A stretch of DNA of 47,052 nucleotides. It comes from Candidatus Amesbacteria bacterium. Its GTDB lineage: Bacteria > Patescibacteriota > Microgenomatia > CAZETR01 > Amesbacteraceae. Numbering within the stretch: the first letter of the stretch is position 1; every line of letters begins with the position of its first letter. A model generated the notes under the pieces. It saw nothing but the letters and a program-made list of their open reading frames with translations, ran no database searches and was not told the DNA's origin. Below, in pieces: positions 4,258 through 44,781 of the stretch. Location: contig DAHWUD010000005.1 in NCBI GenBank assembly GCA_027331445.1, positions 1 to 47,052 on the forward strand, in the 5' to 3' direction. The position numbers were made by a program, and so were the translations under genes.

Positions 4258-6090
4258 ATGGAACAACAACAGAAAGGACCTGTCATTGATCGAAGGACGG
4301 CATTGAAAATTATGCTCAGTACTGCTGCTGCGCCATTTATTGCTGAGATAATATCGGCATGTAATGCTGTAGGTGGGAGTGCACCAGCGGCGGCTGAAGC
4401 TGCCAGAGACAGTTCAGTTGAAGCTACGCGTTCAATTCTGACCGACGTTCCACCACAAGCATTGGCTCATATCACAAGGACAATAAATGAGGGTGATGTT
4501 CCCGTTTACCATGGGTCTTCGGCTTTGGTACTTGTTAATAGGGATCTGTTAGAAAAGGCTGCTTTTACTCCAGAGGAAATTTCCTACCAGAATGCCCTGA
4601 AGATGAATTCTGTAGGGCTGGTGAGCTTTAAAAATTTGATGGAGTCGGAAACCGCTGAATTGGTGTTGACCGGAAGAAATACAACCGGTGTACCTAAAGG
4701 GTATAAGAATATGGGGAACATGAAAAACACTACTGAATTGTGGGTAGGGGCGCAGAGGACAGAACTTCAGGATGAGCCTATAGGTTTACCATACGCCACG
4801 GCTCAAATGTACGCGAGCAGAATGGTGAGTTCAAAAGGGTTTGATCCGGAGATTTCTCAGGAAGTGTTGTCGACTATGAAAACGGAAATCAATACACTAG
4901 AACCAGTTGTCGTAGCAGGCCAGGCTACTGGAGCTCAAGCAGCGGCATATAATAGATTGTCGGCCGATTATAATTTTTTGTTTAACAGACAGGTTTTGAT
5001 TGACCGAATAAACGCTGCTGAGGATCCCAATTTGGGAACGTTGATGACTAAAGCGATGAAGACACCAGTAATATTGGAGTCAAAATTGGCCCCGGATAGG
5101 CTCCAGTTTAATGGAAATAGTAATTTTGATACGACCGGGATGGTGGTAGACGGAGAGCTGCCGTTTACAGATGTGACCCGGGCATATTTTCCAGTGGGTG
5201 CCGATAAAGGGGTTATGGATTTGATTAAGTCCATGTATCCTAATATGGACGTAGTGATTGACCCTAAATTTAATGTGGCTTCGATGCCAAGTGCGATGTT
5301 CAGCGCAGCTTTCAAGGCATCGCAGGCCGTGGAAGCGGTTTCTGAATGGATGCCGATTGCAGGAGCAGTGACCTTAGTGTCGACGCCGGCTGGGGTGATT
5401 GCGAGTGACGTCTTGGGCATGGAACAGCGATATGTCGAAGATAAAAAGAAAGGCGTGACTGACATGGACCTCCCGACATTTTATGCATATGCGAGTAATT
5501 GGAAACGACAGTTGGAGCAAGCCGGAGATGACGGAATTGGGAATAGCATATTCCAGCCAGTTGTAGACTTGGCAAATACTTATGAGGGGGAAGTCGAACC
5601 GAACACGTGGAGATTTGATGTGGTGAGGCCCGGAGAAGCGGTAACCTTACCGGTGGTTATGCCAGATGGAATGCAGGTGAAGTCATTGATAAAAATTGAC
5701 AAGAAAAGCTTTCTTGGCAAGGTTCCGGAAATTGTTGCAGATTCTCAAGTGAATGGCGATCAGAAATTAAATGATGTGAGGTTTGCATGGAATGGCCAGA
5801 AGAACGAAGTAGAAGTGTCAATGCCGGATGGGTCACCGGCTGTAGTTGAAGATACACAATATGCTGGCCATGTGGTAGTGTTTGAAGCGTTGCAAACAGA
5901 TGACCAGAAATTGAACAAGTTGGGAGTTAAGATATGGCCCTTTTGTGAATATAGGTACTTGAAATTGGATGACGGTGCAGTAGTTATCGGAACGAAAGTT
6001 GAAGCTGTCGGTATGGCCGCAGATCAGCTGCCCGTCTCTTCCACACCGTCGAGAATTTTTGCTTGTGCGTTGTCGCGAGCAACTGTTTAA
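4258..6090 (+). CDS. Putative Tat-type lipoprotein of unknown function
   Basis: 610 aa; N-terminus DRRTALKIMLSTAAAPFIAEIISAC has twin-arginine motif plus lipobox-like ISAC. Confidence 0.7.
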   Translation: MEQQQKGPVIDRRTALKIMLSTAAAPFIAEIISACNAVGGSAPAAAEAARDSSVEATRSILTDVPPQALAHITRTINEGDVPVYHGSSALVLVNRDLLEKAAFTPEEISYQNALKMNSVGLVSFKNLMESETAELVLTGRNTTGVPKGYKNMGNMKNTTELWVGAQRTELQDEPIGLPYATAQMYASRMVSSKGFDPEISQEVLSTMKTEINTLEPVVVAGQATGAQAAAYNRLSADYNFLFNRQVLIDRINAAEDPNLGTLMTKAMKTPVILESKLAPDRLQFNGNSNFDTTGMVVDGELPFTDVTRAYFPVGADKGVMDLIKSMYPNMDVVIDPKFNVASMPSAMFSAAFKASQAVEAVSEWMPIAGAVTLVSTPAGVIASDVLGMEQRYVEDKKKGVTDMDLPTFYAYASNWKRQLEQAGDDGIGNSIFQPVVDLANTYEGEVEPNTWRFDVVRPGEAVTLPVVMPDGMQVKSLIKIDKKSFLGKVPEIVADSQVNGDQKLNDVRFAWNGQKNEVEVSMPDGSPAVVEDTQYAGHVVVFEALQTDDQKLNKLGVKIWPFCEYRYLKLDDGAVVIGTKVEAVGMAADQLPVSSTPSRIFACALSRATV

Positions 6091-8887: not shown

Positions 8888-10585
8888 ATGCGAAAGAAAT
8901 TTAAGCCGGGGGTGACGTTCGGGGATTTTATTGTCCACGACAGCGCGGTTAAAAAAACAAGAGTGGACAGCAGCGTACCGGCGGATTACCGGCGAGGGTG
9001 GCTGGCGTGGATGATGGTGGTGGTTTTGTTTGCGATCCTGGGAGTGAGACTGGTCGGATTACAGTTGTTTTACGGCGGGCGGTACCGGACGCTGGCTGAC
9101 GAAAACCGGATTAAGACCATCAAGCTGCCGGCGCCGCGGGGGGAGATTACGGATCGGAACGGGCGGGTGCTGGCGGTCAGCCAAAAAACCAGTGCCGGAT
9201 GGGTGAGGCAATATCCGCTGGGAGCGAATGCGGCACAGGTAGTGGGCTATGTGTCGCAGGTGAACGCGGACGAGGTGGGGCTTTTAAAGGACGCGGGGGA
9301 GCAATACGACATCGGGGATATGATGGGCCGGACCGGGGTAGAACAAGTGTATGAGAAATCGCTGCGGGGGCAGGACGGAGGCCGGTTGGTGGAAGTGGAT
9401 CACGAGGGAAGGGAAGTGCGGGAACTGGGGAGGAGGAACCCGATCCCCGGACAGGGTCTCAAACTGTCAGTGGATGCCAATCTGCAGATGCGGGCTACCG
9501 AGGCCATGGCGGGGAAGAAAGGGGCGGTGATAGCCAGCAACCCGCAGACGGGCGAAGTGCTGGCGCTGGTGTCCAGCCCGAGCTTCGATCCCAATTTGAT
9601 TTCCACCGACTACGCCAAATATGCGGTCGATGCTAACCTGCCGATGTTTGACAGGGCCATCGGGGCGATCTACCCGCCGGGGTCGACATTTAAGATGACG
9701 GTGACGGCGGCGGCGATCACGGACAAAAAAGTGGATCCGAACTTCACCTTTTTGGACCAGGGGATTATCCGGGTGGGGAGTTTTTCGTATACCAACTGGC
9801 TGTACAGCCGGGGTGGGGGGACGGAGGGAACGATCGGGTTTGCCCGGGCGATTACCCGGTCCACGGACACGTTTTTTTATAAAATAGGGGAGCTGACCGG
9901 GCCGGACACGATAGCCAAGTGGGCCCGGGCGGTAGGAATGGGGGCCAAAACCGGGATTGACCTGCCGGGGGAAGTGGCCGGGCTGATTCCGACGCCAGAT
10001 TGGAAGCTGCGGGTCAAAGGGGAAGAGTGGTTTTTGGGAGATACATATCATATGGCCATCGGGCAGGGAGATGTACTGGTGACCCCGCTGCAGATTAATT
10101 TGATGACCAATGTAATGGCGACGGCCGGTAAAAAGTGCCGGCTGCACATGACGGCGGCGGGCAAAGTGAGCTGCAGCCAGGTACCGATTGACCCGGTGGC
10201 TGTGGGAATTATCCATCAGGGCATGGTGGGGGCCTGCAGCCCCGGAGGGACGGCTTTCCCAATTTTTGACTGGAACGAGGCGGCGGCTAAAGGGTTGGCA
10301 GCAGGGACGTTTGCCAAGTCCATGGACGGCCAGCCGCTGCCGCTCGTCGCTTGCAAGACGGGGACGGCCGAGTATGTAGCGGCGGACGGCAAAACGCATC
10401 TGCACGGGTGGCTGACAGCCTACGCGCCGGCGGACAACCCTACGATTTCGGTGACCGTGGTCATGGAAGGCGGAGGGGAAGGATCAAATGTGGCGGCGCC
10501 GGTGGTGAGGCAGGTGCTGGCCAAATACTTCAATGTAACGGATACATATCCGTATCAGAATATCCCGCAGCAGATAAGCGAGTAA
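8888..10585 (+). CDS. mrdA: Penicillin-binding protein 2-type transpeptidase
   Basis: PBP dimerisation region, YPPGSTFKMT (SxxK), KTGTAEY. Confidence 0.9.
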   Translation: MRKKFKPGVTFGDFIVHDSAVKKTRVDSSVPADYRRGWLAWMMVVVLFAILGVRLVGLQLFYGGRYRTLADENRIKTIKLPAPRGEITDRNGRVLAVSQKTSAGWVRQYPLGANAAQVVGYVSQVNADEVGLLKDAGEQYDIGDMMGRTGVEQVYEKSLRGQDGGRLVEVDHEGREVRELGRRNPIPGQGLKLSVDANLQMRATEAMAGKKGAVIASNPQTGEVLALVSSPSFDPNLISTDYAKYAVDANLPMFDRAIGAIYPPGSTFKMTVTAAAITDKKVDPNFTFLDQGIIRVGSFSYTNWLYSRGGGTEGTIGFARAITRSTDTFFYKIGELTGPDTIAKWARAVGMGAKTGIDLPGEVAGLIPTPDWKLRVKGEEWFLGDTYHMAIGQGDVLVTPLQINLMTNVMATAGKKCRLHMTAAGKVSCSQVPIDPVAVGIIHQGMVGACSPGGTAFPIFDWNEAAAKGLAAGTFAKSMDGQPLPLVACKTGTAEYVAADGKTHLHGWLTAYAPADNPTISVTVVMEGGGEGSNVAAPVVRQVLAKYFNVTDTYPYQNIPQQISE

Positions 10586-10615
10586 CAGAATATGCGGTTA
10601 GAGTATGATTTTGAT

Positions 10616-13600
10616 ATGGATTCTTCGGAAATATCAGGTGGGGAGGAAAGGGTAAAGGTTCTGTGGTATCCGGTTGCCGTGACTACAAAGGTAATGTCTG
10701 ATTTTGAAAGAAAGTATTTGAGGGGGGAGGAAAACGAGATAAGGAAATTTATCAGAAGGAATCTGCTGACTGTGGAGAATAAAGGCAGCCGGCTAACGGA
10801 GCAGGAGAAGAAGCTGATTCACACAGAAATGCGGGGGATAGGGTGGCTGTATTTGGATGAACAGATTGAGGGACAAGAGGCGGAAGGGGCAAACCCGTTG
10901 ACGGATATGGGAGTTGTTGTGTTAGCAGGAACCCGCAGCACCGATCTTGTATTCCTGTCTAAAAAGGAACGGAATAATTATTTTCTCTCAGGCTACCACC
11001 TCCACCCGATAATAACAGATGAACGGGCAGGTAATGACAGGGATAAAAGTTACCAAGTGAACTCATCGCGGGGAGGAGAAGTCGTGAGGACGATTGTGGG
11101 GCCGGAAGAGTACAGGACAGCGGCGGTAAAATTTTTCGGGGTGGCTGATTGGGCGGCAAGGAACGCGCGGGGAGTATTGCGGCGGGCAATGCAGAGTTTG
11201 GGTTCGGCAGATGAGTGGAGGGGGACGCAGGAGCTGGGGTTGCTGGAGATAATGGCTAATTTGGGGCTAGTCAACAAAAAAGGTTTTGAGGATATTCAGG
11301 ATTTTTTGGTAAGGGGAGCGGCTGGGATTGATGATGACCTGGATGTGTCAAATTACCGCGTGACGCAGCAGGATTGGTTTGTGGATCAACGGTGGGATGT
11401 ATGGCACGGAAGAAACGGCCGTGAACCGTTGCAATTTCCGAAGACGGTTGTGTTGGAAGCGGCAATGAAAAGGCGGGACCAGCTGTCGCGGAGACTGGAA
11501 CAAGCGAGATCTCCCAGAAGGTTGGTAACAGCGGCCGCTTTTAAAGAACCGGTGGATAACGCGGAAAAAATTGAGCGGGAGATAGAAGCGTTGGAAAAGT
11601 CTTCTTTGAATATGTTCAGTGCAGAATGGAAAAAGGTGTGGGAGGGAGAAACGCCGAGAACAGATGTGCCGGAAAAGCTTAGAAAAGCGGTACTTGGGAG
11701 AATGACGAAAGCGTTATTTGATTTTTTTTCCCACGAGTCCGGATTTCCCAGGAAGGCCATGAATTTTGAGGATCCGATCTATACGGCACGGCTGGATTTG
11801 GCAGTGGAGAAATTGGCAAACGATCGGAATTTCGTGTGGTGGGATCAGATGCAGTCCGAGCGGTATCTGCAATCTTTTGAAAGTGAGATTGGTGATAATC
11901 CCCAGTCGTTTTATTTTATGGCAAAGGCATTGACGGGTCGGTTGTTGAGAGATGCGCTGTCTTTTCGGGGAGGAGATAGGGAACTGATATTCGGCGGACG
12001 GTTGCTAACTGACCGGATGGGGGATGTGGAGGCTTTGCAGGGATTGGCTGCGGGGGCGACCAGGGTTTGGATACAGGATTTGGTGCCGGCGATGCCTGAA
12101 GTGATGCGAAAAGTCGCGGAGCAGAAAAAGGAATATTTGCCGCAGAAAGTCGGTCAGCCGACGACTCTGGAGAAAATCAAGGCCGCTGTCCGGAGCCTGG
12201 GAATTAAAAAGGAAGAGACCTTTTTACGGGTTTTGGGAAGCGAGATATCTAACCCGGCGCTGAAGACACTGGTTATAGCCGCTATGGTATCGGTTCCGAT
12301 CGGAGCGGTGGAAATCGGAGTTTTGAATACCGTGTTGGCGCAAAATATAGATATACAGGAGGTGGCCCGGCAGTTGGGTTGGGGTGGGCTGGGAAATCTG
12401 CCCGAATCGGGAAATAAACCTCCGGATCAGGAATATGGCCGGATTTTGTATGCCCCCAGCGGGGTGAGCATTAATGACCGACAGCAGGAATTTTTTATGG
12501 CAGACAATCTGAATCATTTGGGGATGAGCCTCGTGCCGGTGGTGAGTAGAAGAATTCAGGATTTAGAGTTGAAGGCGACGGAATATAAACCAGAGCAGCT
12601 AGTGATTGCATATGACAGAGCCCAGGTGGACGGAACGTTTTTGACGCCGTTGGGTTGGCATGTAAGTGAAGTCTATTCCAGGAGCGGAGAGCAGGCGGGA
12701 GTATATGGCATCGGGCAAATTTCCGTGTCTGGGGGAGACAAGCAAATAATTGCTGTGCTGGAACGGGATCGGGTGCCGGACTTGAAAAATACCCGACTTG
12801 GAATATTGCCTATTTCTACAGGTTCCTATGAGGCCGGTGGAGGGGGGAATAGCCAAACGGAAGAGCAGAAGCTGAGCGGCGACCCGAGGCTGAACACCAT
12901 TTATCAGCAGATGGATACAGGTTTGAAATCTGCCCCGGGCGATGTCCGGGCACAGACACGGGTAGTGAAGGAATTTTTAGCGGCCTATGGTGATTATGTA
13001 ACAAAATTTAGGTTTTACAGTCTGGATGCCAAGCCCGGCGGAATACCACAAGAAGAGTGGTTGGCGAATAATCCTCAGGCCGGGTATTTTTGTTCCATTG
13101 CCGCTGACGCTACGGATAATATGTTGAGGTCGGTGGGTGTGAAGTCATTCGGTCTGACAGGAATGCCCGTGGCAGATTTTAACGGTCAGTTGTGGGGGAG
13201 TTTCAGCCACGAAAAGAACCTGGTTCTTCTCCCAGATGGGGAGGTGGTGGTTTTTGACGGGACACCGCCGGGAAAGGACGGCCTGACGCCGACGGGGACG
13301 GGGGATTATTTGAAAACTCCCAGGCCGGGGTTTTGGGATTACCATAGAGGTGAGGTGCGGGAGATAGGGGAGGTGGTGGGGGGAGCGGTGGCGGCGATGG
13401 TTCTGTGGATGACAGCAAAGGAATTATATCCGGGGTCTAAGTCGGAGGAGTTGGTGGAAAAGATAAAAAAAGCGTTTGGCCCGCCCCAGAAAGACACTAC
13501 TGAAGATTTGCCGTTGGATATTGAAGATACGGGGAATATGCATTTCAACCCAGAAGAGATCGAGGTTTTGGCCGGGGTGGCATGGCACCTGGCCGGGCTA

Positions 13601-14104
13601 CCGGGTGATGCGGAGTTTGAAGAGACGGCGAAGGCAGATTTAAAAAGCCTGGTGCGGGTGGCGGCCGGCCCCAGAGGTGGTATGTCAGCAGCAGCAGCGA
13701 TGGCTCACGGGGAGGAAGTGGTCTCGGTCATCGAAGAAAAAAACATGCAGGAGGCTTACAAGCAAATGGCGGAGGAATTCGGATCCAGAATCGCCCATGC
13801 GAGTTTTCCGCCGGAGCTGAATGAAGAGATCAGAATGAATTCGGGGCCACGGTTATTCGCGGATTATTATCGATTGGCAAAACTGATGATAAAAGCGGAA
13901 GAACAGGCGAAGGTGCAAGAGATGGTTAGGGGTGTGATTGAAGCGGCGGGTGAACAGGTTGAGGTATCGCAGGCTGAAGATAAAAGGATGCTGTTGTTGC
14001 CGGTAGTGAGAGAGATGTACAATGGGTTGGCGGAAACGGAGAAGAAGAAGGCGGGTAGGTATCTGGTAATGCTATATAAGATATTTCACTTACAAAGTGG
14101 TTAA
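10616..14104 (+). CDS. Large protein with transglutaminase-like domain
   Basis: 1163 aa from ATG 10616 (TATGAT 6 nt upstream); hydrophobic segment TLVIAAMVSVPIGAVEIGVLNTVLA; YFCSIAADATDNMLRSVGVKS...SFSHEKNLVLLPDGEVVVFDGTPP resembles the Cys-His-Asp transglutaminase-like pattern. Confidence 0.75.
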   Translation: MDSSEISGGEERVKVLWYPVAVTTKVMSDFERKYLRGEENEIRKFIRRNLLTVENKGSRLTEQEKKLIHTEMRGIGWLYLDEQIEGQEAEGANPLTDMGVVVLAGTRSTDLVFLSKKERNNYFLSGYHLHPIITDERAGNDRDKSYQVNSSRGGEVVRTIVGPEEYRTAAVKFFGVADWAARNARGVLRRAMQSLGSADEWRGTQELGLLEIMANLGLVNKKGFEDIQDFLVRGAAGIDDDLDVSNYRVTQQDWFVDQRWDVWHGRNGREPLQFPKTVVLEAAMKRRDQLSRRLEQARSPRRLVTAAAFKEPVDNAEKIEREIEALEKSSLNMFSAEWKKVWEGETPRTDVPEKLRKAVLGRMTKALFDFFSHESGFPRKAMNFEDPIYTARLDLAVEKLANDRNFVWWDQMQSERYLQSFESEIGDNPQSFYFMAKALTGRLLRDALSFRGGDRELIFGGRLLTDRMGDVEALQGLAAGATRVWIQDLVPAMPEVMRKVAEQKKEYLPQKVGQPTTLEKIKAAVRSLGIKKEETFLRVLGSEISNPALKTLVIAAMVSVPIGAVEIGVLNTVLAQNIDIQEVARQLGWGGLGNLPESGNKPPDQEYGRILYAPSGVSINDRQQEFFMADNLNHLGMSLVPVVSRRIQDLELKATEYKPEQLVIAYDRAQVDGTFLTPLGWHVSEVYSRSGEQAGVYGIGQISVSGGDKQIIAVLERDRVPDLKNTRLGILPISTGSYEAGGGGNSQTEEQKLSGDPRLNTIYQQMDTGLKSAPGDVRAQTRVVKEFLAAYGDYVTKFRFYSLDAKPGGIPQEEWLANNPQAGYFCSIAADATDNMLRSVGVKSFGLTGMPVADFNGQLWGSFSHEKNLVLLPDGEVVVFDGTPPGKDGLTPTGTGDYLKTPRPGFWDYHRGEVREIGEVVGGAVAAMVLWMTAKELYPGSKSEELVEKIKKAFGPPQKDTTEDLPLDIEDTGNMHFNPEEIEVLAGVAWHLAGLPGDAEFEETAKADLKSLVRVAAGPRGGMSAAAAMAHGEEVVSVIEEKNMQEAYKQMAEEFGSRIAHASFPPELNEEIRMNSGPRLFADYYRLAKLMIKAEEQAKVQEMVRGVIEAAGEQVEVSQAEDKRMLLLPVVREMYNGLAETEKKKAGRYLVMLYKIFHLQSG

Positions 14105-14123
14105 ATGATACAATACTCAACTT

Positions 14124-16163
14124 ATGGATTTGATAGTTGTGGAATCACCGACCAAGGCCCGGACGTTGGGGCGGTTTTTGGGCCCCGAATTTGTGGTGGA
14201 GGCGACGTACGGGCACGTGCGGGATCTGCCGGAGAAGAAAATGGGAGTGGTGGTCAAGGCGACTGGGAGACGGACGGAATTTATCCCGGAGTATGTGGTA
14301 ACCAAAAAGCAGCAGGACCGGATGGATGAGATTGAGAAGTCGGTAGCCAAAGCCGGGACGGTGTATCTGGCCACAGATCCGGATCGGGAAGGGGAAGCAA
14401 TAGCCTTTCATGTAGCGGAGCTACTGAAAGACAAATATTCAAAGTTTAAAGATCAAGGTTCAATTAAAAGAATTGTGTTTCATGAGATTACCAAGACGGC
14501 GATTGACCACGCCCTGGAAAGTCCGAGGAAGATAGATATGCCGCTGGTAAATGCCCAGCAAGCACGGCGGATTTTGGACAGACTTGTAGGGTACAAATTG
14601 TCTCCGCTTTTGTGGAGAAAGGTCCGTAGGGGCTTGTCCGCCGGCCGGGTGCAAAGCGTGGCCGTGCGGTTGGTGGTGGAGAAGGAAAGGGAAATTGAAG
14701 CCTTTGTGCCGGTCGAGTATTGGGACGTCTTTTGTGAGGTGAGTAAGATTCAGGGTCCAAGATTCAGGGTACAATTGGGGGAAAAAAACGGGGGGAAAAT
14801 AAAGATAGGTAATGGTGAGGAAGCGGCGATGGTCAAGGCGGAACTGGAGCGGGCTGTGTATGCGGTGGAAAATGTAGAGAAAAAAGAGGCCAAAAGGACC
14901 CCGCCGGCGCCGTTTACAACTTCGACGCTGCAGCAGGCGGGAGCCAGCCGGTTCGGATGGAGCGCCAAAAAGACCATGCAGGTGGCGCAAAGCCTATATG
15001 AAAAAGGCTGGATCACTTATCACCGGACGGATTCGACTAATATGGCATCGGAAGCCGTGGAAGCGGCGGGCCGGTTTATCGCCGGGAAGTGGGGAGCCAG
15101 ATTCGCGCTGGAGAAGCCGCGGCTGTTTGCGACCAAAAACAAGGTCGCCCAGGAAGCGCATGAGGCCATCCGGCCGACAGAGGTGGAACGGGACCACCTG
15201 GCGGGTGAAGGCATAAACCGGGATGAAATAAAACTGTATGACCTGGTGTGGCGGCGGTTTGTAGCCAGTCAGATGGCGGAAGCGGAATTGCTGAGAGTCG
15301 GCGTGAGTGTGTCGGGGGACGCCGGAGAAAATAAATACGGACTGACGGCCAGAGGCCAGACGATAACTTTTGAGGGCTGGCTGAAACTGTATCCGTCGGA
15401 GAACGCCAAGGTCAAGGTGACCAATTATAATGATCAGAACGAGGAATGCGGCGGGGAGAAGGAAGAAAATCTGCCGGAGGTAAGTACCGGAGAGAAACTG
15501 GAGCTAGCTGAAGTGCTGGCGGAGCAGAAGTTTACCCAGCCGCCGGCCCGGTTCAGCGACGCGACTCTCGTCAAGACTCTGGAAGAAAAAGGCATCGGCC
15601 GACCCTCGACGTACGCTCCGATTCTGACGACCATCCAGGACCGGCAATACGTGGAAAAAGTGGACAAGCGATTCCGCCCCACGCCTTTGGGAGTGGCTGT
15701 GAACGACTTTTTGGTGGAGCATTTCCCGGGGGTGGTGGATTACCAATTTACGGCCAAGATGGAGGACGATCTGGACGCGATTGCCAATGGGGAAAAAGAT
15801 TGGGAGCCGGTTTTGGGTGAGTTTTACGGTCCGTTTGAAAAGATAGTGGAAACGGTTGCGGTCGGGGCCGCCCGGGTAAAGGTGGAAGTGGAAAAGACGG
15901 GGGACAAGTGCCCACTGTGCGGAGAGGGCGAGGTGGTGGTGAGGATCGGCAGATTCGGCAGGTTTCTGGCCTGCAGCCGGTATCCGGAGTGTAAATATAA
16001 AGCTAATTTTGTGAATAAGATCGGGGTGCCCTGCCCCAAATGCGGGGGGGATATTATTGTGCGGCGGACGCGGAACCGGAAAACTTTTTACGGGTGCAGC
16101 AATTATCCCAAGTGTGATTTTGCCAGCTGGACCAAGCCGGTGGCGGCGGATGTTAAAATATAA
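14124..16163 (+). CDS. topA: DNA topoisomerase I
   Basis: LIVVESPTKARTLGRFLG, DPDREGEAIAFH, two C-terminal zinc-ribbon repeats. Confidence 0.97.
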   Translation: MDLIVVESPTKARTLGRFLGPEFVVEATYGHVRDLPEKKMGVVVKATGRRTEFIPEYVVTKKQQDRMDEIEKSVAKAGTVYLATDPDREGEAIAFHVAELLKDKYSKFKDQGSIKRIVFHEITKTAIDHALESPRKIDMPLVNAQQARRILDRLVGYKLSPLLWRKVRRGLSAGRVQSVAVRLVVEKEREIEAFVPVEYWDVFCEVSKIQGPRFRVQLGEKNGGKIKIGNGEEAAMVKAELERAVYAVENVEKKEAKRTPPAPFTTSTLQQAGASRFGWSAKKTMQVAQSLYEKGWITYHRTDSTNMASEAVEAAGRFIAGKWGARFALEKPRLFATKNKVAQEAHEAIRPTEVERDHLAGEGINRDEIKLYDLVWRRFVASQMAEAELLRVGVSVSGDAGENKYGLTARGQTITFEGWLKLYPSENAKVKVTNYNDQNEECGGEKEENLPEVSTGEKLELAEVLAEQKFTQPPARFSDATLVKTLEEKGIGRPSTYAPILTTIQDRQYVEKVDKRFRPTPLGVAVNDFLVEHFPGVVDYQFTAKMEDDLDAIANGEKDWEPVLGEFYGPFEKIVETVAVGAARVKVEVEKTGDKCPLCGEGEVVVRIGRFGRFLACSRYPECKYKANFVNKIGVPCPKCGGDIIVRRTRNRKTFYGCSNYPKCDFASWTKPVAADVKI

Positions 16164-42765: not shown

Positions 42766-42798
42766 GGGGAAATATTAGCATAAAATATAGGGGGCGTG

Positions 42799-42807
42799 TG
42801 GTATAAT
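42799..42807 (+). promoter_or_regulatory. Extended -10 promoter TGGTATAAT
   Basis: Perfect TGnTATAAT. Confidence 0.75.
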
Positions 42808-42814
42808 TCTAGCC

Positions 42815-42862
42815 GTGGAAATGAGGCTATCAATGTTTATTTGCGGGCTGAGCCCGGTTTAA
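42815..42862 (+). CDS. Candidate leader peptide MEMRLSMFICGLSPV
   Basis: GTG 7 nt after extended -10; 15 codons, TAA 4 nt before terminator hairpin. Confidence 0.45.
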   Translation: MEMRLSMFICGLSPV

Positions 42863-42866
42863 CCAG

Positions 42867-42892
42867 TCCCGCCCAGTGGCGGGATTTTTTTT
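42867..42892 (+). terminator. Intrinsic terminator (attenuator candidate)
   Basis: TCCCGCC-CAGT-GGCGGGA followed by 8 T. Confidence 0.85.
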
Positions 42893-42900
42893 GGCTGATT

Positions 42901-44781
42901 ATGGCTGGCAAAATTGAGGAACTCCGGGGAAAGGCAGTCGGAGCCGGGTTGGCCCTGATCGCCGTGGGCGGGATGGCGGCAGCCTGTGCCCCGGTGGGCG
43001 GGTTCTCCGGTAATGAGATCCAGGGCTCCCTAGTTGAGGTCACGTCGGGGGCGTCGGCGGCCAAGGAAACAAACGGGCAGAAGAAAGCGCTGGAAGAGCA
43101 GGCGTTGGCCGGCATTACGCAGTTGGCCAGAAGTCAGCTGAATATCGGTGAGTGTGACCCGGAGCTGTATACCGTGGTGGGAAATGACGGCAAGGCCAGG
43201 GCAGATTTGGTGTGTAATGATCAGCAGGGGTCTATTTTGGTGGCCCAGCTGATTGGGGGGAAGGAGACGGTGATCGGCCAACGGTTGTTTGCCAGTTCTG
43301 ACAAATCCAAAATATATTACAGGGGAGCTGACGGGAGCTTGCAGGAGGCGATGGAGGTCGCACCGGCCAGCGTGGTTTACGTGTTTTCTGACGGGGCCAG
43401 AGTGAAATTTGATCAGGAAGCAGCCGGTGGGCAAAACACCCGGAATGACCAGGTCCAGGTGGCGGTGGCGCAGCTGGAGGAAAATTTGACCGGGAATATT
43501 GTGGCCCAGGCCCAGGGGTTGGAAGCGACCAAGACGGCGACACCGGTACCGGCGACAGCTACGAAAGAGGTGCCAACGGTGACGAAGGCGCCAACGGTTA
43601 CCAGCACGCCTGAGGTGTGGGCGGCACCGGCGGAGTTGGATGCAAATGCATGGGAGCAGATGCAGAAGGATGGGTTTAGCGTGGTAAAGAGTAAAGACGG
43701 GGGGTGGGAGATGGACAAACTGGTGACTAAAAAACAGGATGCCCCGGAATGGACGGCGTCAGTGGGTAAACTGAGTGCGAAGGGGATCGAGATTACCGTC
43801 CCCGGAGAACAGGCCCCGGTGGAGTTGGAATATTCACAACTCAAGTTTGACGGAGAATATGTGTATACCCAGCAGACTCAAGTTGATCCGAAGTTCATTC
43901 ACTTGGACGTGGCGCAGAAGTTTGATGGAAGTAAGGATCTAATTTACAGCCCCTACACAGGCAAATGGTTTAGAAACGAATGGGTGACTACCCCCGACGG
44001 TCGTTTTATCTACAACGTGGCGGAGAATTTCGGAGGGTTGATGACAGCCAACTCAAAAAATCCGGCGGCGGAAGCGGATTTTTATGACAAACTGGTATCC
44101 GGTGTATATCACATAATGCAAATTGATCCCAGAAAGAACCTGCCGGCTGACCCATCAGCTTTTGTAAACAAATTTACGCAGGCTCTAACCAACGAGGGAA
44201 TGATCAGCGGGTTGACAATACCTGAGCGGTTCCCGGTACCCTTAAATAGTGCGGGTCAGCCGGTTAATGGAGCAAACCAATGGAGGAATGTAGATATGGC
44301 TGGAACCCCGGTTGAAATTCCTGCTGTAGCTCCGGGAATTATTATTGCCTTTTCTGATCAATCGGACCAGGAGGTGATGAATTACAGCCCGACGAACCCT
44401 GACTCGCCAGATTATAAATTTATTGATTTCCGGGGGGGATTGGGGCAGGTTCATTACGGAGTAGTGAAAGGGGAGGACGGAAAGAACCACTTGGAGATCA
44501 TTTTCAGAAAATCCTGGCCGATTGATGACGTGACTAACGGGGGGGTGGCATATAATGCCAGAGACAGCAAGTACTCACCAGAGCATAACTTTAAATCATG
44601 GGATGCGCTAATCCAGGATTGGGTGAATTTATCTGCTGTTGAATTGGACTCCTCAAATTATAAGTGGGAGTTTCTCGAGTTGTTTGATGTGATCTCGTTC
44701 GCGAAAGTTGAGGACTTTGGTGCTGTGCTGGCTCAATATCAGAACAGGGATCCTAAAGATGCGCCTTTCGTTTTGTATTAA
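42901..44781 (+). CDS. Putative surface lipoprotein with Thr/Pro-rich linker
   Basis: MAGKIEELRGKAVGAGLALIAVGGMAAACAPVGG; TATPVPATATKEVPTVTKAPTVTSTPE linker. Confidence 0.75.
   Translation: MAGKIEELRGKAVGAGLALIAVGGMAAACAPVGGFSGNEIQGSLVEVTSGASAAKETNGQKKALEEQALAGITQLARSQLNIGECDPELYTVVGNDGKARADLVCNDQQGSILVAQLIGGKETVIGQRLFASSDKSKIYYRGADGSLQEAMEVAPASVVYVFSDGARVKFDQEAAGGQNTRNDQVQVAVAQLEENLTGNIVAQAQGLEATKTATPVPATATKEVPTVTKAPTVTSTPEVWAAPAELDANAWEQMQKDGFSVVKSKDGGWEMDKLVTKKQDAPEWTASVGKLSAKGIEITVPGEQAPVELEYSQLKFDGEYVYTQQTQVDPKFIHLDVAQKFDGSKDLIYSPYTGKWFRNEWVTTPDGRFIYNVAENFGGLMTANSKNPAAEADFYDKLVSGVYHIMQIDPRKNLPADPSAFVNKFTQALTNEGMISGLTIPERFPVPLNSAGQPVNGANQWRNVDMAGTPVEIPAVAPGIIIAFSDQSDQEVMNYSPTNPDSPDYKFIDFRGGLGQVHYGVVKGEDGKNHLEIIFRKSWPIDDVTNGGVAYNARDSKYSPEHNFKSWDALIQDWVNLSAVELDSSNYKWEFLELFDVISFAKVEDFGAVLAQYQNRDPKDAPFVLY

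What the first reader, a model, noticed from the sequence alone, without database searches (positions are those of the whole stretch)
10616..14104. 1163-aa unassigned protein with a transglutaminase-like catalytic triad
Candidate catalytic residues: Cys 13091-13093 (YFCSIAADATDNMLRSVGVKS), His 13208-13210 (SFSHEKNLVLLPDG), Asp 13256-13258 (VVFDGTPP), with 39 and 16 residue spacing as in transglutaminase-like/TgpA-type domains. The remainder, with one hydrophobic segment and a long N-terminal region, matches nothing I recognise. It lies directly after mreB-PBP2, suggesting an envelope role.
Basis: partly seen in the sequence, partly recalled or inferred. Interest (0 to 1): 0.65.

Follow-up and report, generated by a model that had tools for sequence, protein, structure and literature searches.

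The report
Rare membrane transglutaminase-like enzyme in Microgenomatia
An ultra-small uncultured bacterium carries a large two-pass membrane protein with a very divergent transglutaminase-like cysteine enzyme that probably faces the cell exterior; its three catalytic residues are unchanged in every complete relative found, although the protein matches no catalogued family.

Summary
The ORF is real (1170 aa from ATG 10592, or 1162 aa from ATG 10616) and Cys834, His873 and Asp889 lie exactly where stated. It matches no Pfam, NCBIfam or PDB sequence. Ten genomes, all in its own class (Microgenomatia), hold this family (relatives 20-30% identical). Across nine full-length catalytic modules only eight columns are invariant, and three of them are this Cys, His and Asp; Cys834 is the only cysteine in the protein. 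AlphaFold2 gives the transglutaminase secondary-structure order. Foldseek's best PDB match is the TgpA periplasmic domain (E 6e-6, probability 1.00), followed by other transglutaminase-superfamily enzymes. The family profile also picks out a classical PF01841 protein with Cys, His and Asp in register. So the transglutaminase-like call is supported. The PBP2 argument is not: PBP2-topA is conserved in family genomes with a variable 56-2611 bp interval, the gene sits there only in this genome, and relatives lie elsewhere. There are two membrane segments, not one; they put the enzyme outside the membrane. The N-terminal 555 aa are a new helical region found only in this family; two distant members carry a different N-terminus. 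Best reading: an accessory, membrane-tethered, extracytoplasmic Cys-His-Asp amidase or acyltransferase. Substrate unknown.

The parts
10592..14104 (+). Whole ORF, 1170 aa (alternative start ATG 10616, 1162 aa); two-pass membrane protein with an extracytoplasmic transglutaminase-like domain
   Evidence: no match in Pfam, NCBIfam or PDB sequences
10592..12256 (+). N-terminal region (aa 1-555), mostly alpha-helical, predicted cytoplasmic; a novel domain
   Evidence: conserved in 7 family members and never found without the transglutaminase module in 187 genomes
12263..12331 (+). Transmembrane segment 1 (aa 558-580)
   Evidence: Kyte-Doolittle 2.25; same place in homologues; basic flank on the N side in most
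12419..12826 (+). Strand-rich extracytoplasmic region (aa 610-745) before the catalytic core
   Evidence: DSSP of the AlphaFold2 model, mostly low confidence; conserved P686-x-GW
12851..13276 (+). Transglutaminase-like catalytic core (aa 754-895)
13091..13093 (+). Predicted nucleophile Cys834, the only Cys in the protein
13208..13210 (+). Predicted catalytic His873
13256..13258 (+). Predicted catalytic Asp889 in the invariant D-x-T-P motif
13361..13420 (+). Transmembrane segment 2 (aa 924-943)
   Evidence: Kyte-Doolittle 1.38; same place in homologues; basic flank on the C side in most
13421..14101 (+). C-terminal helical region (aa 944-1170), predicted cytoplasmic; similarity between L012 and L031/L032 extends past TM2 although their N-termini differ

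Best explanation
A membrane-tethered extracytoplasmic cysteine enzyme of the transglutaminase-like superfamily. The N-terminal ~555 aa (helical) lie in the cytoplasm, TM1 crosses the membrane, a strand-rich region plus a Cys834-His873-Asp889 core lies outside, TM2 returns, and a helical tail lies inside. Mechanism by superfamily analogy: the Cys834 thiolate, activated by His873 and Asp889, attacks a side-chain or peptide amide to give a thioester acyl-enzyme, which is resolved by water (peptidase, amidase or deamidase) or by an amine (crosslinking) on an envelope or surface protein or peptide; the cytoplasmic parts may sense a signal or anchor the enzyme. Supported by computation: fold class, triad conservation, two membrane segments. 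Inferred: orientation, reaction type, substrate, role of the cytoplasmic parts. The patchy presence (10 of 374 class genomes) indicates an accessory function.
For: Invariant C/H/D in all nine full-length modules. Single Cys. AlphaFold2 on residues 585-930 with 6 sequences: helix 250-262 starting at Cys, then strands 267-271, 274-277, 283-287, 291-295, 301-304 carrying or flanking His and Asp; block pLDDT about 70-93 over most of the core and 38-40 around 270-289. Foldseek PDB: TgpA 6g4h/6g49 E 6e-6 prob 1.00, then 3isr, Rad4, arylamine N-acetyltransferases, PNGase, PeiP; the full-length model also ranks TgpA first, PeiP next. Family HMM hits a PF01841 protein at 14 bits with C, H and D aligned, while non-family control ORFs score no better than 1.1 bits. 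hhalign puts the triads in register. Hydrophobic segments flank the module in all full-length members checked; the N-flank of TM1 and C-flank of TM2 are basic in most.
Against: No significant direct Pfam or PDB sequence match. Profile-profile match to classical transglutaminases is weak (E 0.054). The AlphaFold2 models are only moderate overall (pLDDT 56 and pTM 0.55; full length 52 and 0.31), the global TM-score to TgpA is low (0.3-0.4), and the loop before His is poorly predicted. No activity evidence of any kind. The L012 and L014 TM1 segments are weak.
Confidence: 0.82

Rival explanations
1. It is specifically a protein crosslinker (true transglutaminase), as reported for P. aeruginosa TgpA in vitro, joining Gln to Lys in surface proteins.
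For: TgpA is the nearest fold, and its periplasmic part has transglutaminase activity in vitro (PMC3507681).
Against: The superfamily holds proteases, amidases and acetyltransferases with the same triad (PMC10318531), and the other fold neighbours (PeiP, PNGase, N-acetyltransferases) are not crosslinkers. Sequence cannot separate them.
Confidence: 0.2
2. It is a cell-wall maturation factor working with MreB-PBP2.
For: Same strand, starting 6 nt (or 30 nt from ATG 10616) after the PBP2 stop codon, so co-transcription is likely here.
Against: PBP2 is found in 13 of 14 family genomes and topA in 13, on the same contig 56-2611 bp apart in ten others, with other genes or short spacers between them, while only 3 of 14 carry this family. 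In G002 and G009 the homologue lies near rplA/nusG; in G016 and G088 elsewhere.
Confidence: 0.06
3. It is an enzymatically dead scaffold with a transglutaminase fold.
For: Fast-evolving large protein with a patchy distribution.
Against: The triad residues are three of only eight invariant columns; dead members usually lose the Cys.
Confidence: 0.07
4. It is cargo of a mobile element or phage used in conflict or surface modification.
For: Patchy; the gene is 95% identical between two genera (G016, G055), with homology limited to the gene plus 84 nt upstream; a terminase-like gene and a serine recombinase are upstream in L014 and a recombinase C-terminal-like ORF downstream in L012.
Against: No relative in 50,697 phage records or in IMG/VR; no PADLOC match; other members sit among housekeeping genes. 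The L014 contig could be mis-binned or chimeric.
Confidence: 0.12

Closest known systems
TgpA (PA2873) of Pseudomonas aeruginosa, PDB 6g49/6g4h; DUF3488 + Transglut_core PF01841
   Same: Extracytoplasmic transglutaminase core held between membrane segments; Cys-His-Asp; nearest fold in the PDB
   Different: TgpA has six TM helices (five in DUF3488), is 668-688 aa long and is recognised by PF01841 (PMC3507681); here there is a 555-aa soluble N-terminus, two TMs, a ~225-aa helical tail, and no PF01841 match
Classical secreted PF01841 proteins of Microgenomatia (own copy G000:C59:1826-2146)
   Same: Same superfamily; triad in register
   Different: About 610 aa; in 34 of 40 related genomes; only weakly related in sequence; the present family is a separate, rare second transglutaminase
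Bacterial transglutaminase-like cysteine proteases, e.g. HvyA of Caulobacter
   Same: Envelope-side C-H-D enzyme; all three residues needed in HvyA (PMC4241560)
   Different: HvyA is a secreted periplasmic protein with a signal sequence and no TM pair; no sequence comparison gave a match here
Pseudomurein endoisopeptidase PeiP (8z4f)
   Same: Fold neighbour; acts on envelope isopeptide bonds
   Different: Weak match only; archaeal-virus lysin architecture (from general knowledge)
CPR-C4 / vasohibin-like proteases
   Same: Cysteine protease of the wider superfamily from the same phyla (PMC9108980)
   Different: Cys-His-Leu(carbonyl) triad; not among the 50 listed fold matches

Membership tests
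Transglutaminase-like superfamily (fold and mechanism) | Conserved Cys-His-Asp triad in that order, Asp in a D-x-T motif | tested here: met
   C834, H873, D889, T891, P892 invariant in 9 homologues
Transglutaminase-like superfamily (fold and mechanism) | Cys at the N-terminus of a helix followed by strands bearing His and Asp | tested here: met
   DSSP of the AlphaFold2 model and Foldseek top matches
Transglutaminase-like superfamily (fold and mechanism) | Triad side chains converge in space | not testable with these tools
   Model coordinates are not exposed; the loop before His has low pLDDT
Transglut_core PF01841 | Score above the curated cut-off | tested here: not met
   No PF01841 match at E<=1 for the window protein or for the proteins of five relatives
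TgpA (DUF3488 + PF01841) | N-terminal multi-TM DUF3488 domain | tested here: not met
   Soluble 555-aa N-terminus and one TM before the domain
TgpA (DUF3488 + PF01841) | Extracytoplasmic transglutaminase domain between TM segments | tested here: met
   TM1 and TM2 flank the module in full-length homologues; orientation inferred from flanking charges
Protein-glutamine gamma-glutamyltransferase activity | Gln-amine crosslinking in vitro | not testable with these tools
   Needs biochemistry

The most novel reading that the evidence does not exclude
A new class of transmembrane signalling or effector enzymes in Microgenomatia, in which interchangeable cytoplasmic N-terminal modules (the 555-aa helical domain here; a GHKL-ATPase-looking region in G649 and G666) control an outward-facing transglutaminase-like enzyme across the membrane, possibly spread by mobile elements and used on host or neighbour surfaces.
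Probability: 0.15. Interest if true: 0.65.

Novelty: new variant of a known kind. Interest (0 to 1): 0.36.

Why it matters
It adds an unannotated, highly divergent branch with its own architecture to a well-known enzyme superfamily, in bacteria whose cell-surface biology is almost unknown. The N-terminal region is a domain with no known relative. If the enzyme acts on the cell surface or on a host, it would be a rare biochemically testable handle on how these episymbiont-like cells modify envelopes.

Tried and rejected
Pfam, NCBIfam, PHROGs, PADLOC and PDB sequence searches gave nothing significant for the protein. A direct protein query of genome contigs and a profile scan of viral contigs found nothing; phages gave no match. 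Viral fold library: no match at E<=0.001. The N-terminal fold could not be assigned (full-length Foldseek returned only transglutaminase-superfamily enzymes and low-probability helical proteins). A GHKL ATPase assignment for the G649/G666 N-termini rests on motif resemblance by eye (E-x3-N-x2-D; LGKHGRGG) and was not confirmed by Pfam or PDB profile searches, so it is not claimed. Functional linkage to PBP2 was rejected after the synteny test. A one-line tblastn signal in G002's PBP2-topA interval (E 0.001, out of frame with PBP2) was treated as chance.

Full report
Observation. The window lies in a 0.93 Mb, 94% complete genome; named records matching relatives are Candidatus Amesbacteria, Woesebacteria and Patescibacteria MAGs, i.e. 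Microgenomatia (class name from general knowledge). Cys834, His873 and Asp889 are at the stated bases.

Is it more than chance? No library recognises the protein. Whole-genome searches found relatives: G002 and G009 (same family), G016, G055 and G088 (same class) with the single sequence, and G645, G649, G666 and G686 with a profile. In total 10 of 374 class genomes, the window's own included, have strong matches, and none outside the class among 380 phylum genomes apart from weak hits, one of them a classical transglutaminase. In the five-protein alignment (about 21% identity) C, H and D are invariant; in nine catalytic modules the invariant columns are Y, L, C834, H873, G883, D889, T891 and P892. 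The G055 copy is cut at its contig end just after the Cys and so cannot be checked for His and Asp. C834 is the only Cys in the protein, and C523 the only one in the G686 relative. Between the 95%-identical G016 and G055 genes dN/dS is 0.18.

Fold. The order is three helices, a helix starting at the Cys, then five strands carrying or flanking His and Asp. Foldseek against the PDB: TgpA periplasmic domain 6g4h/6g49 at E 6e-6, probability 1.00, then 3isr, Rad4, arylamine N-acetyltransferases, PNGase and PeiP, all of the transglutaminase superfamily (superfamily membership of these from general knowledge). The low-confidence full-length model again ranks TgpA first and PeiP next. Global TM-scores are low (0.3-0.4), so this supports fold class, not detail. 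By sequence, hhalign against 14 classical Microgenomatia PF01841 proteins is weak (E 0.054) but puts C, H and D in register. An HMM built only from the new family finds a PF01841 protein (L047; PF01841 E 4.6e-20) as its best outside hit at 14 bits, again in register, while non-family control ORFs reach 1.1 bits at best.

Architecture. Two hydrophobic segments (about 558-580 and 924-943) flank the module, and corresponding segments are present in full-length homologues; the N-side of TM1 and C-side of TM2 are basic in most. This predicts N-in, enzyme-out, C-in. The N-terminal 555 aa form a helical region that always accompanies the module (6 of 6 in 187 genomes, none standalone), plus G645, where the gene is split between two frames. 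G649 and G666 keep the enzyme, TM2 and C-terminal similarity but have an unrelated N-terminus resembling a GHKL ATPase by motif only (unconfirmed). G686 has yet another arrangement.

Neighbourhood. The gene starts 6 nt after the PBP2 stop codon (30 nt from the alternative ATG) and ends 19 nt before topA, so co-transcription here is likely. But PBP2-topA is the conserved pair across the family: ten other genomes have them on one contig 56-2611 bp apart, with short or unrelated genes between. Relatives of this gene lie near rplA/nusG (G002, G009) or elsewhere (G016, G088). Linkage to PBP2 is therefore lineage-specific and gives no functional hint. The genome also has a classical secreted PF01841 protein, as do 34 of 40 related genomes, so this is a second, rare transglutaminase. 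In G055 the gene follows a terminase-like gene and is 95% identical to the G016 gene, with homology starting 84 nt upstream of the start codon; horizontal transfer or mis-binning are both possible.

Mechanism. By superfamily analogy: a Cys thiolate activated by His and Asp, an acyl-enzyme thioester, then transfer to water or to an amine. TgpA has in vitro transglutaminase activity and is needed for viability (PMC3507681); HvyA needs C, H and D to restrict capsulation (PMC4241560); the wider superfamily includes proteases, amidases and acetyltransferases (PMC10318531). Hydrolysis seems to me somewhat more likely than crosslinking, but nothing here decides it. Shown by computation: fold class, conservation, membrane segments. 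Inferred: orientation, catalysis, substrate, regulation.

Verdict. A new, divergent, rare family in a known superfamily: moderate interest.

Noticed in passing
L031:7354-11511 (-), L032:6635-10786 (+): Same transglutaminase module and C-terminus fused to a different ~650-aa N-terminus with GHKL-ATPase-like motifs (PYE-x2-QN-x2-DY; ATLGKHGRGGTVAATAAL); each is followed by a ~160-170-aa ORF of similar sequence.
   Followed up: partly
L014:5460-7331 and L012:12198-12764: Terminase large subunit (PHROG 2, E 1e-13) directly upstream of the gene in L014, which also has a serine recombinase; a recombinase C-terminal-like ORF downstream in L012. The genes are 95% identical between genera.
   Followed up: partly
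L030:1056-4720: G645 homologue is split between two reading frames (703 + 459 aa ORFs): frameshifted pseudogene, sequencing error or recoding.
   Followed up: partly
window 10585-14124 and L074-L083: The PBP2-topA interval is a variable slot in this family (56 to 3541 bp) holding unrelated small genes, including similar ~160-aa surface-like proteins in G003, G010 and G011 and PaaX-like ORFs in G004, G006 and G011.
   Followed up: partly
window 4258-6090 and 42796-44781: Two further large ORFs (610 and 661 aa) with no Pfam match at E<=0.001.
   Followed up: no
L012:9657-9740 (aa about 583-610): TM1 of the G016/G055 proteins is preceded by a Tat-like RRAFLK motif at an internal position.
   Followed up: no
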